Both the position numbers and the translations under genes were made by a program. A stretch of DNA of 64,000 nt from Archangium violaceum (GTDB lineage: Bacteria > Myxococcota > Myxococcia > Myxococcales > Myxococcaceae): assembly GCF_016887565.1 (NCBI RefSeq), contig NZ_CP069396.1:1081001-1145000 (forward strand). Direction: 5' to 3'. A model generated the notes under the pieces. The model saw only the letters and a program-made list of their open reading frames with translations. It did no database searches and was not told where the DNA came from. Numbering within the stretch: the stretch's first letter is position 1; the number at the start of each line of letters is the position of its first letter. Positions 3,823 through 25,453 of the stretch are shown here, piece by piece.

Positions 3823-3855
3823 CCCTCACCCCGACCCTCTCCCAGAGGGAGAGGG
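3823..3855. repeat. REP-like palindromic intergenic repeat, copy 1
   Basis: The core is CCCTCTCCC (3835-3843), a 3-nt loop, then GGGAGAGGG (3847-3855), flanked at 3823-3832 by CCCTCACCCC. The same unit recurs in inverted orientation at 18361 and in degenerate form at 6065. It lies between the stop of the M3 peptidase gene and the start of the TrpF-like gene, both on the minus strand, and its transcript could form a very stable hairpin. Confidence 0.8.
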
Positions 3856-17359: not shown

Positions 17360-17902
17360 GTGCTGCGTTCCGTCCTCATCCTGGTGCTGTTGCTGGTGGC
17401 GCTCCCGGTGTCCGCCGTGGAGCGCGCCAGCCGTACGCGGGTGAGCGCCAACGGTACCTTCAGTGTGCGCCTGGTGGAGAAGAGCCCCGGGAAGTGCACG
17501 CTGGAGGTGTCGAAGGAGAGCGGCCCCATCTGGACGCTGGCGGAGTGCGTGGGCGGGGTGGACGACCTGTACTTCGTCTCCAATGACGGAGAGCGGGTGT
17601 GGGTGTTCTTCCCGCTGGCGCCCAAGGGCACGGTGAAGCTGCCCGGCAAGAAGAACCGGAAGGTGCCCGCGTGGGCCAACACGGTGGTGGCGGCGGAGTA
17701 TGGCCGTCAGGGCCGTGTGCAGGAGCGGCGCCTGCTGGAGTACGTGGGTGTACGCGAGCTGCCGGAGGTGAGGCAGATGGCGCAGCACCTCAAGTGGTTG
17801 GAGGGCGTGCTCGGGGTTCCGGGCAAGGGCCCGCGCCTGACGGACGCGGGGCGCATCGAGTTCGAGACGGTGGGTGGCAAGTCCCACCAGCTGACGTTCT
17901 GA
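17360..17902 (+). CDS. Secreted protein of unknown function inside the atp operon
   Basis: The 180-residue protein begins at GTG 17360, 8 nt after GGGAGG, with a signal peptide (MLRSVLILVLLLVALPVSAVE). The mature part has beta-strand-like segments (TFSVRLVE, CTLEVSKESGPIWTLAEC, DDLYFVSNDGERVWVFFPL) followed by a Lys-rich patch (LPGKKNRKVPAW) and a helical end. I do not recognise the family. It lies 30 bp after atpD and 30 bp before atpC on the same strand, so it is co-transcribed with F1 genes even though it should be exported to the periplasm. A role linked to energy status is only a guess. Confidence 0.78.
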   Translation: MLRSVLILVLLLVALPVSAVERASRTRVSANGTFSVRLVEKSPGKCTLEVSKESGPIWTLAECVGGVDDLYFVSNDGERVWVFFPLAPKGTVKLPGKKNRKVPAWANTVVAAEYGRQGRVQERRLLEYVGVRELPEVRQMAQHLKWLEGVLGVPGKGPRLTDAGRIEFETVGGKSHQLTF

Positions 17903-18360: not shown

Positions 18361-18393
18361 CCCTCTCCCTCCGGGAGAGGGCTGGGGTGAGGG
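18361..18393. repeat. REP-like palindromic intergenic repeat, copy 2
   Basis: CCCTCTCCC (18361-18369), TCC loop, GGGAGAGGG (18373-18381), CT, GGGGTGAGGG. This is the reverse complement of the element at 3823-3855 except in the loop and the 2-nt linker. The perfect 9-bp stem after atpC could act as a transcript terminator or 3' stabiliser, although no U-run follows. Confidence 0.85.
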
Positions 18394-18491
18394 TATCTCG
18401 GGTCCCGAGTTCGGGGCCTGGGATGCCCTCTTCGCGTTTCTGGGCCCCCGATTCCCCTCGTACCGGCGGGTGACTTGACGCTGGGTCAAAA

Positions 18492-18514
18492 AAGGTGCAT
18501 CACATATGCATCTT
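18492..18514. promoter_or_regulatory. NsrR-type operator, distal site
   Basis: AAGGTGCATCA, one base, ATATGCATCTT. This fits the 11-1-11 inverted repeat known for NsrR in other bacteria (AAGATGCATTT type) at 8 of 11 and 10 of 11 positions. It precedes the truncated haemoglobin gene whose operon also encodes an NsrR homologue. Confidence 0.7.
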
Positions 18515-18516
18515 TA

Positions 18517-18539
18517 AAGATGCATGTGAAATGCATCGA
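18517..18539. promoter_or_regulatory. NsrR-type operator, proximal site
   Basis: AAGATGCATGT, one base, AAATGCATCGA: a second 11-1-11 inverted repeat, matching 10 and 9 of 11 positions. Its centre is 25 bp from that of the distal site, and the facing half-sites together make the perfect palindrome TGCATCTTTAAAGATGCA at 18507-18524. The core promoter was not resolved but probably overlaps these sites. Confidence 0.75.
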
Positions 18540-18574
18540 TACGGCGGCCCGAAGCGGGCCGGGGGAGAAGACAC

Positions 18575-18964
18575 ATGAAGGGCAACGTCGCGGAGAATCA
18601 GTCCAGCCTGTACGAGCAGATTGGCGGAGAGCCGGCGATGAGCGCGGCGGTGGAGCTCTTCTACCGGAAGGTGCTGTCGGACGAGCGCATCAGCCGCTTC
18701 TTCGAGGACGTGGACATGGAGCGCCAGGCGGCGAAGCAGAAGGCGTTCCTGACCATGGTGTGCGGAGGCCCGAGCGCCTACTCGGGCAAGGACATGCGCA
18801 AGGGGCACGCACACCTGGTGAAGCAGGGGCTGAACGACACGCACTTCAACGCGGTGGCGGAGCACCTGGGCGCGACGCTGACGGAGCTGGGGGTGCCGAC
18901 GCCGCTGGTGGAGCAGGTGCTGAAGATCGCCGAGAGCGCTCGCGCGGACGTGCTCAACCGCTGA
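18575..18964 (+). CDS. Group I truncated haemoglobin
   Basis: This 129-residue 2/2 globin of the TrHbN type begins its domain with SLYEQIGGEPAMSAAVELFYRKVL. The proximal haem ligand is probably H78 in GHAHLVKQ, followed by the typical LNDTHFNAVAEHLGATLTELGV. In this context it should oxidise nitric oxide to nitrate using bound O2. It is first in an operon with a 2Fe-2S/flavin reductase 19 bp downstream, which would re-reduce its haem, and with nsrR. Two NsrR-type sites lie upstream, so it is expected to be derepressed by NO. The ribosome-binding site GGGGGAGAAG supports the ATG. Confidence 0.93.
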   Translation: MKGNVAENQSSLYEQIGGEPAMSAAVELFYRKVLSDERISRFFEDVDMERQAAKQKAFLTMVCGGPSAYSGKDMRKGHAHLVKQGLNDTHFNAVAEHLGATLTELGVPTPLVEQVLKIAESARADVLNR

Positions 18965-18983
18965 GTCCGGAGAGGGCACGCAC

Positions 18984-20000
18984 ATGGCGAGGGTGAAGCA
19001 CGAGGGCCAGTGGTACGGGCTGGACGAAGGCGAGTCGGTGCTCGACGGACTGCTGCGGCGGGGCGTGGCGGTGCCGCACTCGTGCCGGGCGGGGGCCTGC
19101 CAGTCCTGTCTGATGCGGGCCGAGCGCGGAGAGGTGCCGGCCAAGGCGCAGGTGGGACTGAAGGAGACGCTGAAGGCCCGGGGCTACTTCCTCGCGTGCG
19201 CGTGCCAGCCGGACTCCGAGCTCGAGGTGGCTGGGGCCGGCGCGGACCTGCGGGTGTCCGCGCGCATCGCCTCGCTGGAGCGCCTGAGCGACAGCGTGCT
19301 GCGCGTGCGGCTGCGCCCCGAGGGGCGCTTCGAGTACCGGGCCGGCCAGTACGTGTCCCTGCTTCGAGCCGATGGCCTGGCCCGCAGCTACTCACTGGCG
19401 AGCCAGCCGCACGAGGACCTGTTGGAGCTCCACGTTCGCCGGATCTCCGGAGGCCTCATGAGCGGGTGGCTCTTCGACGAGGCCGGTCCGGGAGAACCGG
19501 TGGTGCTCCAAGGACCCGCGGGTGACTGTTTCTACGTGCCGGGGCGGCCGGAGCAGCCGCTGTTGCTGGCGGGGACGGGCACGGGCCTGGCGCCGCTGTA
19601 CGGAATCGCCCGGGACGCGCTGGCCCAGGGGCACACCGGGCCCATCTGGCTCTTCCACGGCGCGGTCGACGCCTCGGGGCTGTACCTCGTGGACGAGCTG
19701 CGCGCCCTGCAGTCCCAGTACCCCCAGCTCCAGTACCGGCCCTGTGTGCTGAAAGGGCAGGAACGGGTGGGAGTCTGGGTGGGGGCTCTCGATGCGCTCA
19801 TCAAGGAGGCATGCCCCCGGCCGGCGGGCTGGCGCGCCCTGCTGTGCGGCAACCCCGACCTGGTGCTATCCCTGAGGAAGAAGCTCTTCCTCGCCGGACT
19901 GTCGCTCAAGGAGATCCACGCGGACGCGTTCCTCCCGAGCACACCTCCGCCGCAGGCGGGCACAGGGGTGACGACGAGTGCATCTGACACTTCACGCTGA
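18984..20000 (+). CDS. 2Fe-2S ferredoxin/FAD/NAD(P)H oxidoreductase
   Basis: This 338-residue reductase has three modules. A plant-type ferredoxin comes first, with cluster ligands C34, C39, C42 and C72 (CRAGACQSC and CACQP). A flavin-binding beta-barrel follows, with RSYSLAS near residue 130. The NAD(P)H-binding Rossmann part has LLAGTGTGLAPLYGI and LLCGNPDLV. The layout resembles the reductases of ring-hydroxylating dioxygenases and the reductase half of flavohaemoglobin systems. It should pass electrons from NAD(P)H to the haemoglobin encoded upstream. Its 3' end overlaps nsrR by 23 nt, which implies translational coupling. Confidence 0.9.
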   Translation: MARVKHEGQWYGLDEGESVLDGLLRRGVAVPHSCRAGACQSCLMRAERGEVPAKAQVGLKETLKARGYFLACACQPDSELEVAGAGADLRVSARIASLERLSDSVLRVRLRPEGRFEYRAGQYVSLLRADGLARSYSLASQPHEDLLELHVRRISGGLMSGWLFDEAGPGEPVVLQGPAGDCFYVPGRPEQPLLLAGTGTGLAPLYGIARDALAQGHTGPIWLFHGAVDASGLYLVDELRALQSQYPQLQYRPCVLKGQERVGVWVGALDALIKEACPRPAGWRALLCGNPDLVLSLRKKLFLAGLSLKEIHADAFLPSTPPPQAGTGVTTSASDTSR

Positions 20001-20436
20001 CTACGCGCTGCGCGTGCTGCTGTACCTCGCGTCCAACCCCGACCGGGTGGTCTCCACGGGCGAGGTGAGCGACGCGTACGGCATCTCCAAGCACCACCTC
20101 GTCCGGGTGGTGCAGGGCCTGGGCCGGCATGGCTTCGTGGAGGTGCGGCCCGGGCGCGCGGGAGGGGTGGTTCTCGCGCGGCCCCCCGCGGAGATCTCCG
20201 TGGGCGAGGTGGTGCGCCGCATGGAGCCGGACTTCCACGTGGTGGAGTGCTTCGACCCCGCGACGAACAAGTGCCCCATCACCCCGGCCTGTGGACTCAT
20301 CGGCGTGCTCAACGAGGCCACGCGCGCCTTCCTGTCCACGTTGGACAAGTACACGCTGGAGGACGTCCTGCGCCGCGGCCCGCGCAAGCTGTCCGCCTAC
20401 TTCCTCAAGCCCGCGGCGGACGCCGGGGTGGGTTGA
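19978..20436 (+). CDS. nsrR: NsrR, NO-sensing Rrf2-family repressor
   Basis: The 152-residue Rrf2-family regulator has a winged helix-turn-helix (ADYALRVLLYLASNPD, TGEVSDAYGISKHHLVRVVQGL). The Fe-S ligands are three Cys at C91, C99 and C105 (ECFDPATNKCPITPAC). The ITPACGL and LDKYTLEDVL segments are diagnostic of NsrR rather than IscR. In NsrR the cluster is destroyed by NO, releasing DNA. The spacing C-x7-C is slightly wider than the C-x4-C of the E. coli protein. It sits third in the operon whose upstream region carries two NsrR-type sites, so it is probably autoregulated. The GTG start lies inside the reductase gene. Confidence 0.93.
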   Translation: MHLTLHADYALRVLLYLASNPDRVVSTGEVSDAYGISKHHLVRVVQGLGRHGFVEVRPGRAGGVVLARPPAEISVGEVVRRMEPDFHVVECFDPATNKCPITPACGLIGVLNEATRAFLSTLDKYTLEDVLRRGPRKLSAYFLKPAADAGVG

Positions 20437-20446
20437 AGGGGCTCGC

Positions 20447-20704
20447 GTGACGTCGCCCGTGCTGGAGCTCTTCCACCTCATCGCGGATCCTCCCTCGGCG
20501 CTGGCGCGCCGCTACGTGGTGGACTACGCGCTCGAGGACCGCGTGCGCTTCCGCAATGTCGCCTTTCCAGAAGCGGAGGCGGATTGGCGAGAGCGGGGTG
20601 GACACAGCACACCAGCGCTCTGGGATGGCGTGCACCTGCACCAGGGCGCCGAGGCGGTGCTGGCCAGACTGCAGGCGGTTGTCAACCTCGGTCGCGACGC
20701 GTAG
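20447..20704 (+). CDS. Small thioredoxin-fold protein without CxxC
   Basis: This 85-residue protein starts at GTG 20447, 10 nt after the nsrR stop. The sequence (SPVLELFHLIADPPSALAR, VRFRNVAFPEAEADW, STPALWDG, AEAVLARLQ) follows a glutaredoxin-like beta-alpha-beta / beta-beta-alpha order, with a cis-Pro-like TPALW before the last strands. The position of the CxxC redox motif is occupied by ADPP, so it cannot act as an ordinary disulphide reductase. It is probably part of the NO-defence operon; its role is unknown. Confidence 0.65.
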   Translation: MTSPVLELFHLIADPPSALARRYVVDYALEDRVRFRNVAFPEAEADWRERGGHSTPALWDGVHLHQGAEAVLARLQAVVNLGRDA

Positions 20705-23085: not shown

Positions 23086-24414
23086 ATGGATCTGCTCTAC
23101 GCACGCGCCCAGATGGGGTTGTCGCTCGCCTTCCACATCATCTTCGCGGCCGCGGGCATCGCGCTGCCGCTGTTGATGGTGCTCAGTGACGTGAAGGCCC
23201 GGAGGACGGGCGACGCGGACTACGTGCAACTCAGCAAGAAGCTGGCGAAGGGCACGGCCATCCTCTTCGCGGTGGGGGCGGTGAGCGGCACGGTGCTGTC
23301 CTTCGAGCTGGGGCTCTTGTGGCCCGAGTTCATGGGGACATACGGAGAAGTGATAGGGCTGCCCTTCGCGCTGGAGGGGACGGCCTTCTTCACCGAGGCG
23401 GTGTTCCTCGGCATCTACCTGTACGGGCGGGAGCGGATACCGGCGGGGCTGCACCTCTTCTCGGGGGTGATGGTGGCGCTGAGCGGCGCGGCGAGCGCCT
23501 TCTTCGTCACGCTGGTGAACGCCTTCATGAACCACCCGGCGGGCTTCACGCCCACGCCGGGAGGGCCGGTGAACGTGGACCCGGTGGCGGCGATGTTCAG
23601 CCCGGGCTGGGCCTACCAGGTGCTGCACACGCTGCTGGCGTGCTACCAGGCCAGTGCCTTCGCCATGGCGGGCATCCACGCCTTCGTGCTGCTGCGGCAC
23701 CCGGGCGCGGCCTTCCACCGCAAGGCGCTCTCCGTGGCCCTGCCGCTCGCGTGCGTCTCCGCGCTGCTGCAACCGTTCGCGGGAGACCTGGAGGCGGAGC
23801 ACATCGCCCATGCGCAGCCGGTGAAGCTGGCGGCGGCGGAGGGACTCTTCGAGACGCAGCGGGGCGCCCCCCTGAGCGTGGGCGGGCTGCCGGACGTGGA
23901 GACGCGCACCACGCCCTACGCCCTCGAGATACCCAAGGGGCTGTCGATGCTGGCGTTCAGGGATCCGGACGCGGAGGTGAAGGGGCTGAACGACTTCCCG
24001 CGCGACGAGTGGCCGCCGGTGCTCAAGGTGCACCTGGCCTTCCAGGTCATGGTGGGCACGGGCGGGCTGATGGCGTTGCTGTCGGTGGTGACGCTCTTCC
24101 TGCGCTGGCGGCACAAGGCGTGGCCCGAGGGACGGCGGGTGCTGTGGGGCTGGCTGCTGTGCGGACCGCTCGGGGTGGTGGCGATGGAGGCCGGGTGGCT
24201 CGTCACCGAGTGGGGACGCCAGCCGTGGATCATCCGCGGGGTGATGCGCACGGCGGACGCGGTGACGCCGGTGGCGAACCTGGGCGTGCCCTTCTGGACG
24301 TTCACGCTCGTCTACCTCTTCCTGGGGGCGATGGTGGTGTTCCTCCTGGTGCGGCAGGTGTCGGGCACGCTGCCGGGCCGCGCGCCCCCGTCGGAGGTGG
24401 CCCATGTCCACTGA
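23086..24414 (+). CDS. cydA: Cytochrome bd-type ubiquinol oxidase subunit I
   Basis: This 442-residue membrane subunit binds the haems of cytochrome bd oxidase and oxidises quinol while reducing O2 to water. The N-terminal segment YARAQMGLSLAFHIIFA carries the His that ligates haem b595 in homologues. LLWPEFMGTYGEVIGLPFALEGTAFF is characteristic, as are the quinol-site region (periplasmic Q loop around residues 250-310) and the GRQPW motif near the end. The Q loop looks short, as in CioA-type oxidases. The oxidase is high-affinity and NO-tolerant in other species, which fits the nearby NO-defence operon. Confidence 0.94.
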   Translation: MDLLYARAQMGLSLAFHIIFAAAGIALPLLMVLSDVKARRTGDADYVQLSKKLAKGTAILFAVGAVSGTVLSFELGLLWPEFMGTYGEVIGLPFALEGTAFFTEAVFLGIYLYGRERIPAGLHLFSGVMVALSGAASAFFVTLVNAFMNHPAGFTPTPGGPVNVDPVAAMFSPGWAYQVLHTLLACYQASAFAMAGIHAFVLLRHPGAAFHRKALSVALPLACVSALLQPFAGDLEAEHIAHAQPVKLAAAEGLFETQRGAPLSVGGLPDVETRTTPYALEIPKGLSMLAFRDPDAEVKGLNDFPRDEWPPVLKVHLAFQVMVGTGGLMALLSVVTLFLRWRHKAWPEGRRVLWGWLLCGPLGVVAMEAGWLVTEWGRQPWIIRGVMRTADAVTPVANLGVPFWTFTLVYLFLGAMVVFLLVRQVSGTLPGRAPPSEVAHVH

Positions 24415-25453
24415 GCTGTGGTTGCTGGGCGGAGCGCTGGTGGGCAGCTTCGTCCTCTACGCGCTCTTCGGGGGCGCGGACTTCGGCGGCGGGGTGTGGG
24501 ACCTGCTGGCCTCGGGGCCCCGGAAGGCGGAGCAGCGGGCGCTCATCGCCAGGGCGCTCGGGCCGGTGTGGGAGGTGAACCACGTCTGGCTCATCATCGG
24601 CGTCGTCATCCTCTTCGGCGTCTTCCCCAGGGCCTTCGCGGTGCTGTCGGTGGCGCTGCACGTGCCGCTGACGCTGCTGCTGCTGGGCATCATCTTCCGG
24701 GGCACGGCCTTCACCTTCCGCACCTACGACGCGCGGGGAGACAGGGTGCAGCGGCGCTGGGGGCTCGTCTTCAGCGTGGCGAGTGTGCTGGCGCCCGTGC
24801 TGCTGGGCATGTGCGTGGGCGCGGTGGTGAGCGGAGACATCCACGTGAGGGGGCTGAAGGTGGAGAGCGGCTTCATCTCCGCGTGGCTGTCGCCCTTCGC
24901 GCTGGCGGTGGGGGTGCTGGCGCTGTGCCTCTTCGCCTTCCTGGCGGCGGTGTACCTCACGGCGGAGACGAGCGAGCCCGCGCTCCAGGAGGACTTCCGG
25001 CGGCGGGCGCTGGGGGCGGGCGTGGCGGTGTTCCTCGCGGCCCTCGGGGTGCTGGTGCTGGCGCGGGGTGGGGCGCCCCGGGTGTGGTCGGGGCTGACGG
25101 GCTCGCCCTTCGCGCTGGCGCTGCATGGGGCCACGGCGGTGGCGGCGGTGCTGGCCTTCGGACTGTTGCTCACCCGACACTTCTGGCCGGCGCGCGTGGC
25201 GGCGGCGGCGCAGGTGGGCCTCATCGTCGCGGGGTGGGCGGCCTCCCAGTATCCCTACCTCGTGGTGCCGGATGTCACCCTCCAGGGCGCGGCGGCGAAC
25301 GTGGCCACCCAGCGGGCGCTCTTGGTGGCGCTCGCTGTGGGCGGGGCCCTCATCTTCCCGTCCCTGGTGTTCCTGTTGAGGGTGTTCCAGTCGCCCCGCC
25401 CACCATTTTCCACCCCAGGTGCGAGTGGAAGCGCCTCCAGACCCGTGCAGTAG
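24404..25453 (+). CDS. cydB: Cytochrome bd-type ubiquinol oxidase subunit II
   Basis: The 349-residue polytopic subunit has the CydB signature: LYALFGGADFGGGVWDLLA near the N-terminus, then GPVWEVNHVWLII and AFTFRTYDAR. It binds no haem itself but stabilises the complex with CydA. It overlaps cydA by 11 nt, so the two are translated together at equal levels. No small CydX-type gene or cydDC genes were noticed nearby. The C-terminal 20 residues are Ser/Pro-rich. Confidence 0.94.
   Translation: MSTELWLLGGALVGSFVLYALFGGADFGGGVWDLLASGPRKAEQRALIARALGPVWEVNHVWLIIGVVILFGVFPRAFAVLSVALHVPLTLLLLGIIFRGTAFTFRTYDARGDRVQRRWGLVFSVASVLAPVLLGMCVGAVVSGDIHVRGLKVESGFISAWLSPFALAVGVLALCLFAFLAAVYLTAETSEPALQEDFRRRALGAGVAVFLAALGVLVLARGGAPRVWSGLTGSPFALALHGATAVAAVLAFGLLLTRHFWPARVAAAAQVGLIVAGWAASQYPYLVVPDVTLQGAAANVATQRALLVALAVGGALIFPSLVFLLRVFQSPRPPFSTPGASGSASRPVQ

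What the first reader, a model, noticed from the sequence alone, without database searches (positions are those of the whole stretch)
18492..20704. Complete NO-responsive operon with paired NsrR operators
Two 11-1-11 inverted repeats matching the NsrR consensus, 25 bp apart and sharing a central palindrome, precede truncated haemoglobin, an NAD(P)H reductase, NsrR itself and a small thioredoxin-fold gene. This predicts an NO dioxygenase split into two polypeptides, controlled by its own NO sensor, in place of a fused flavohaemoglobin.
Basis: partly seen in the sequence, partly recalled or inferred. Interest (0 to 1): 0.68.

Follow-up and report, generated by a model that had tools for sequence, protein, structure and literature searches.

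The report
NsrR-controlled split nitric-oxide detoxification operon
This soil bacterium carries a compact, self-regulated set of genes predicted to turn toxic nitric oxide into nitrate with two separate proteins instead of the usual fused one; the arrangement is real and conserved, but a close precedent was published in 2005, so it is a new member of a known kind.

Summary
Two 23-bp (11-1-11) NsrR-type operators lie at 18492-18514 and 18517-18539, 25 bp centre to centre, before a group I truncated haemoglobin, a [2Fe-2S]-FAD-NAD reductase and nsrR. Relatives keep one operator at the same place. The exact core motif occurs once in this 13.2-Mb genome; across 96 related genomes it was found 39 times, 36 at this operon. 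Best reading: an NsrR-repressed, two-polypeptide NO dioxygenase. In the family it never co-occurs with flavohaemoglobin, which appears only in seven genomes, each with NorR beside it. A degenerate operator also precedes this genome's quinol NO reductase.

Two corrections. The cysteine-free thioredoxin-fold gene is not a core member but an old ATP-synthase neighbour: in genomes without the unit, or with it elsewhere, it follows atpC directly. Only the upstream operator is ancestral; the second is specific to this genus.

The kind is known: Rodionov et al. 2005 described Legionella glbN-ferredoxin reductase as an NsrR target, and tandem NsrR sites at B. subtilis hmp. The same unit occurs here across several phyla. 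NO sensing, induction and enzyme activity are inferred, not shown.

The parts
18475..18480 (+). TTGACG, candidate -35 hexamer; the operator starts 11 bp after it
   Evidence: TTGACN followed by an 11-bp gap to the operator in 16 of 24 loci of other genera (4 have gaps of 12 or 16, 4 have none) and here. No good TATAAT was found, so the promoter is inferred from the conserved spacing.
18492..18514 (.). NsrR operator 1 (upstream, ancestral position)
   Evidence: 1 mismatch to GATGYATN5ATRCATC
18517..18539 (.). NsrR operator 2 (downstream, specific to this genus, 25 bp centre to centre)
   Evidence: 0 mismatches to GATGYATN5ATRCATC, the only such place in the genome; a second site is present in all six genomes of the genus
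18506..18525 (.). Perfect 20-bp palindrome formed by the inner half-sites of operators 1 and 2
18575..18964 (+). Group I truncated haemoglobin (GlbN/HbN type), 129 aa
   Evidence: PF01152; best solved relatives are cyanoglobins and other group I trHbs, E 1e-32; Tyr30 (B10), Gln51 (E7), Gln55 (E11) and His78 (F8) invariant in the alignment with cyanoglobin
18984..20000 (+). NAD(P)H reductase with N-terminal [2Fe-2S] ferredoxin domain, FAD and NAD domains, 338 aa
   Evidence: PF00111 + PF00970 + PF00175; nearest solved: P450 reductase 5ogx, BenC-type reductases, flavohaemoprotein reductase half; CX4CX2CXnC in all 70 reductases from the related loci
19978..20436 (+). nsrR, Rrf2-family repressor, GTG start, 152 aa, overlaps the reductase by 23 nt
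   Evidence: PF02082; best solved match S. coelicolor NsrR 5n07, E 3.5e-18; Asp8 and three cysteines conserved
20447..20704 (+). 85-aa thioredoxin-fold protein without cysteines; ancestral ATP-synthase-cluster neighbour, probably co-transcribed here but not a core part of the NO unit
   Evidence: AF2 model pLDDT 88, Foldseek to glutaredoxins; single copy in 88 of 96 family genomes, next to atpC where the NO unit is absent or elsewhere

Best explanation
A self-regulated NO-detoxification unit. NsrR, carrying an NO-sensitive Fe-S cluster held by Asp8 and three cysteines, binds the operator(s) just downstream of the -35 hexamer and blocks transcription of its own operon. NO destroys or nitrosylates the cluster, NsrR lets go, and the truncated haemoglobin and its reductase are made. 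Oxy-haemoglobin oxidises NO to nitrate, and the [2Fe-2S]-FAD reductase re-reduces the haem from NAD(P)H: a two-polypeptide NO dioxygenase standing in for the fused Hmp. Once NO is gone, newly made NsrR restores repression. The same regulator probably also controls a quinol NO reductase elsewhere in the genome. Shown by sequence: genes, operators, conservation, exclusivity with Hmp. Inferred: cluster type, repression, NO response, electron transfer, NO dioxygenation.
For: Domains and nearest solved relatives. Operator conserved at the same place in all genera with the operon that were read, with fixed 11-bp spacing from TTGAC in most. Exact pattern in 37 of 53 genomes with the operon but 1 of 43 without; 36 of 39 occurrences are at the operon. 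One of the three exceptions lies in the promoter of a quinol NO reductase, and 12 orthologues, this genome included, have their best (often weak) site at that position, 18.4 bits here against about 0.04 random hits per Mb. NsrR ligands invariant. In other phyla trHb loci with an adjacent NsrR carry the motif in 20 of 29 cases, against 4 of 28 without. 53 genomes of the family have the operon, 7 have Hmp with NorR next door, none has both. Precedent in Legionella (PMC1274295, PMC3820574).
Against: No experiment. The regulator scores 124 bits to NCBIfam NsrR, below the 182-bit cut-off, and almost as well to RirA (122.8), although proven S. coelicolor NsrR scores only 91. No good -10 or terminator was found. 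The Hmp exclusivity is not phylogenetically independent: chance of no overlap 0.003 if genomes were independent, and the seven Hmp genomes fall in two genera. The qNOR site in this genome is only 18 bits, and in two orthologues only 6-8 bits.
Confidence: 0.85

Rival explanations
1. The Rrf2 protein senses iron or Fe-S status (RirA/RisR-like) rather than NO, and the operon answers iron or oxidative stress.
For: NCBIfam gives nearly equal scores to NsrR and RirA, neither above cut-off. M. xanthus has another Rrf2 regulator, RisR, for Fe-S biogenesis, described as close to NsrR (PMC9973013). A putative NsrR of S. venezuelae proved to be a new kind of Rrf2 member (abstract of PMC5015018).
Against: The operators are of the NsrR type (GATGCAT-N5-ATGCATC, PMC1274295); the targets are trHb-reductase and a quinol NO reductase; best solved match is NsrR; RisR lies beside the suf operon, not here.
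Confidence: 0.1
2. The haemoglobin and reductase do other NO- or nitrite-linked chemistry (nitrite reduction, NO reduction or denitrosylation in low oxygen, peroxidase) and NO dioxygenation is minor.
For: Group I trHbs show several activities in vitro; one paper argues that NO dioxygenase activity of haemoglobins is ubiquitous in vitro but limited by reduction in vivo (title of PMC2323109). No biochemistry exists for this pair.
Against: Dedicated reductase encoded directly downstream in 70 of 80 related loci; distal residues TyrB10 and GlnE11 kept; Hmp in sister species that lack the unit.
Confidence: 0.12
3. The four genes form one functional operon in which the thioredoxin-fold protein takes part in NO defence.
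For: It follows nsrR by 10 bp here and overlaps it in several Myxococcus-type loci, so it is probably co-transcribed.
Against: No cysteine in any member. Present in genomes without the NO unit, directly after atpC; absent beside the unit in Corallococcus and in the other phyla.
Confidence: 0.08

Closest known systems
Legionella pneumophila glbN-lpg2536 operon, NsrR target (Rodionov et al. 2005, PMC1274295; Gardner 2012, PMC3820574)
   Same: Group I truncated (cyano)globin followed by a ferredoxin-reductase gene, preceded by an NsrR site, in a genome without hmp; the authors already propose NO oxidation as with Hmp.
   Different: The paper describes a two-gene target; here nsrR is the third gene, the operator is doubled, and the unit sits in the ATP-synthase cluster. 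The Legionella sequence itself was not compared here.
Bacillus subtilis hmp with tandem NsrR sites (PMC1274295)
   Same: Two adjacent NsrR sites over a promoter of an NO dioxygenase gene.
   Different: Fused flavohaemoglobin; nsrR elsewhere.
Streptomyces coelicolor NsrR (PDB 5n07; PMC4432287)
   Same: Closest solved relative of the regulator; a specialised NsrR with few targets, Asp8 and three cysteines.
   Different: Targets include flavohaemoglobins; sequence similarity moderate.
Hmp flavohaemoglobin with divergent NorR in sister myxobacteria (loci L053-L059)
   Same: Presumed same reaction, NO plus O2 to nitrate, under an NO sensor.
   Different: One fused polypeptide with a 3/3 globin, and an unrelated sigma-54 activator; never found together with the split unit.

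Membership tests
NsrR (Rrf2 family) | Rrf2 domain, closest to proven NsrR among solved structures | tested here: met
   PF02082 E 8e-36; TIGR00738 above cut-off; top solved hits are NsrR 5n07/5n08
NsrR (Rrf2 family) | Asp8 and three cysteines for the Fe-S cluster | tested here: met
   HADYALR at the N terminus and CFDPATNKCPITPAC; invariant in 30 family members and present in the distant relatives
NsrR (Rrf2 family) | NCBIfam NF008240 equivalog cut-off (182 bits) | tested here: inconclusive
   124 bits, below cut-off; but proven S. coelicolor NsrR scores only 91, so the cut-off is too narrow to exclude
NsrR (Rrf2 family) | NsrR-type operators (GATGYAT-N5-ATRCATC) upstream of NO genes | tested here: met
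   Motif present and nearly confined to the operon, also at qNOR; binding itself not tested
NsrR (Rrf2 family) | Release from DNA by NO | not testable with these tools
   Needs protein work
Group I truncated haemoglobin | 2/2 globin of N type with proximal His and TyrB10/GlnE11 | tested here: met
Two-component NO dioxygenase (globin plus separate reductase) | Globin and FNR-type reductase encoded together | tested here: met
   conserved in relatives
Two-component NO dioxygenase (globin plus separate reductase) | Reductase reduces the globin; NO plus O2 to nitrate | not testable with these tools
   Needs enzymology
Flavohaemoglobin Hmp | Fused globin-FAD-NAD protein over NF009805 cut-off | tested here: not met
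   Genome-wide best match 124.9 bits against a 432-bit cut-off, reductase part only
Thioredoxin/glutaredoxin | Thioredoxin fold | tested here: met
   Model pLDDT 88 (best of five; the others 43-55), Foldseek prob 1.0 to glutaredoxins, TMq about 0.67
Thioredoxin/glutaredoxin | Redox-active cysteine(s) | tested here: not met
   No cysteine in any of the family members aligned

The most novel reading that the evidence does not exclude
By landing between atpC and its old neighbour, the NO unit may have put a conserved, cysteine-free thioredoxin-fold protein of the ATP-synthase cluster under NO control, so that in Archangium, Myxococcus and relatives NO triggers both its own removal and an adjustment of ATP synthase.
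Probability: 0.07. Interest if true: 0.6.

Novelty: new member of a known kind. Interest (0 to 1): 0.33.

Why it matters
It gives a testable NO-response system for myxobacteria, including M. xanthus, a genetic model whose genome carries the single-operator form (L090). It shows two interchangeable packages inside one bacterial family: NsrR with a split NO dioxygenase, and NorR with fused Hmp. It also shows that the trHb-reductase-NsrR unit, noted in print for Legionella, occurs in several phyla (Acidobacteria, Planctomycetota, Hydrogenedentota, gamma- and beta-proteobacteria, Myxococcota), so split NO dioxygenases are probably more common than annotation suggests.

Tried and rejected
Sigma-70 promoter and terminator scans gave nothing. 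Pfam, solved-structure and NCBIfam searches did not identify the small fourth protein by sequence; only the structure model did. Reductase homologues at 39-48% in the family's other genera (L062-L067) had no NsrR, trHb of this kind or site around them and were set aside. Two of the three off-operon exact sites (G044, G074) share one sequence; the G044 copy lies inside an open reading frame, and both were taken as chance. The 27 two-mismatch sites in the genome were not followed; most are expected to be chance. The reversed-pattern control of the genome search was not used as a significance test because its dinucleotides differ.

Full report
OBSERVATION. The sequence at 18492-18539 holds two 23-bp inverted repeats of 11-1-11 form, 25 bp centre to centre (2 bp between their edges), whose inner halves form a perfect 20-bp palindrome. 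They match the published NsrR motif gATGyAT-N5-ATrCATc (PMC1274295) with 1 and 0 mismatches, and no other place in the 13.2-Mb genome has fewer than 2. A weight matrix trained only on the operators of other genera puts these two sites at 31.4 and 28.2 bits and the next independent place in the window at 9.0. Genes follow at 18575 (truncated haemoglobin), 18984 (reductase), 19978 (Rrf2 regulator, GTG, 23-nt overlap) and 20447 (small protein).

IDENTITY OF THE PROTEINS. The haemoglobin is a group I trHb, closest in the PDB to cyanoglobin (E 1e-32) and related to mycobacterial HbN; in the alignment with cyanoglobin the residues at B10 (Tyr), E7 (Gln), E11 (Gln) and F8 (His) are kept (residue naming from general knowledge of the family). 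The reductase has three domains, [2Fe-2S] ferredoxin, FAD and NAD, like benzoate-dioxygenase reductases, whereas Hmp has only the last two. The regulator is best matched by S. coelicolor NsrR and keeps Asp8 and three cysteines, as do the relatives from other phyla. It misses NCBIfam's NsrR cut-off, but so does proven S. coelicolor NsrR, with a lower score.

CONSERVATION. Searches over 96 genomes of the family found the regulator in 53, with trHb and reductase of the same kind in those genomes. In the 30 loci examined, an operator stands upstream of trHb; its match to the consensus is below 17 of 22 in four of them. In 16 of 24 loci of other genera it begins exactly 11 bp after TTGACN, and four more have gaps of 12 or 16. 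In the window's genus the upstream operator holds this place, so it is the ancestral one; the second, 25 bp further down, occurs in all six genomes of the genus and in no other genus read. Record titles of matching contigs point to Archangium for this genus.

REGULON. The exact motif was found 39 times in the 96 genomes, 36 of them at the operon; 37 of 53 operon genomes have it against 1 of 43 others. One exception (G120) lies in the promoter region of a quinol NO reductase (PF22085 and COX1; solved qNOR relatives at E 1e-241). The window genome has this qNOR at 10481845-10484112 (79% identity), and all 12 orthologues examined have their best upstream motif hit at about the same place, from 6 to 42 bits, 18.4 bits here; random sequence gives about 0.04 such hits per Mb. 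This is independent support for an NO regulator, and suggests a second target here.

REPLACEMENT BY HMP. Flavohaemoglobin above cut-off is present in seven genomes of two genera. The same seven, and no others, have NorR above cut-off, about 0.2 kb away on the opposite strand (L053 read in full). None of the seven has the split operon. One of the two genera holds both types in different species. Treated as independent, the lack of overlap has probability 0.003; relatedness weakens that. Some genomes have neither.

THE FOURTH GENE. The 85-aa protein has a predicted thioredoxin fold (best model pLDDT 88, the other four 43-55; glutaredoxin hits) but no cysteine in any relative. It occurs in 88 of 96 family genomes. 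In genomes without the unit, or with the unit elsewhere, it follows atpC directly and precedes the ADP-ribosylglycohydrolase gene (G058, G069, G074, G075, G079, G042, G054). So the three-gene NO unit sits between atpC and this old neighbour. The gene may be co-transcribed, since it starts 10 bp after nsrR here and overlaps it in several relatives, but it is not part of the portable unit.

WIDER DISTRIBUTION. A scan of 84,980 genomes with the trHb alignment kept the 80 best loci. Of 57 outside Myxococcaceae, 47 have the reductase directly downstream and 29 an NsrR relative within 3.5 kb, downstream in Acidobacteria, Planctomycetota and a Myxococcales bin, mostly divergent in methanotrophs, Gallionella relatives and Hydrogenedentota. 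A motif of at least 12 of 14 lies upstream in 20 of 29 with NsrR and 4 of 28 without (Fisher 4e-5), against 0.3% in shuffles.

KNOWN OR NEW. Rodionov et al. predicted in 2005 that the glbN-lpg2536 pair of L. pneumophila, in a genome without hmp, is the sole NsrR target and may oxidise NO as Hmp does, and Gardner's review takes this up. The same paper notes tandem NsrR sites at B. subtilis hmp. The finding is therefore a new, well-supported member of a known kind. New in detail here: the doubled operator of one genus, the ATP-synthase insertion site, the swap with hmp-norR, and the likely qNOR target. I found no paper on this operon in myxobacteria in the library searched, which does not hold most subscription journals.

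LIMITS. Nothing here shows NO binding, repression or catalysis. Statements on cluster chemistry and on haem-pocket residues rest on the named families. Genus labels come from the genome tool and record titles.

Noticed in passing
18361-18393 (and 3823-3855): A 33-bp palindromic repeat (CCCTCTCCCTCCGGGAGAGGGCTGGGGTGAGGG) between atpC and the operators; about 500 copies (243 + 259, up to 3 mismatches) in the genome, apparently a REP-like intergenic element.
   Followed up: partly
23086-25453: cydA and cydB of a cytochrome bd oxidase downstream on the same strand; bd oxidases are known to resist NO. The cydA gene is also near the ATP-synthase cluster in relatives without the NO unit there, so the closeness is probably old.
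   Followed up: partly
20447-20704: Cysteine-free thioredoxin-fold protein, single copy in most of the family and tied to atpC, with a strongly conserved VNLGRD tail: a candidate unknown accessory of ATP synthase.
   Followed up: partly
L174 (G000:C1:10481845-10484112): Quinol NO reductase of the window's genome with a degenerate NsrR-type site about 144 bp upstream, conserved in place in 12 orthologues.
   Followed up: yes
L061 (G000:C1:12156323-12156625): A second truncated haemoglobin in the genome, without this reductase, nsrR or operator around it.
   Followed up: partly
L060 (G075): Only the first 252 of 399 Hmp positions match in this genome, which has neither NorR above cut-off nor the split unit; perhaps a decayed hmp.
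   Followed up: no
17360-17902: An uncharacterised ORF lies between atpD and atpC here and in most related genomes looked at (L156-L162, L165).
   Followed up: no
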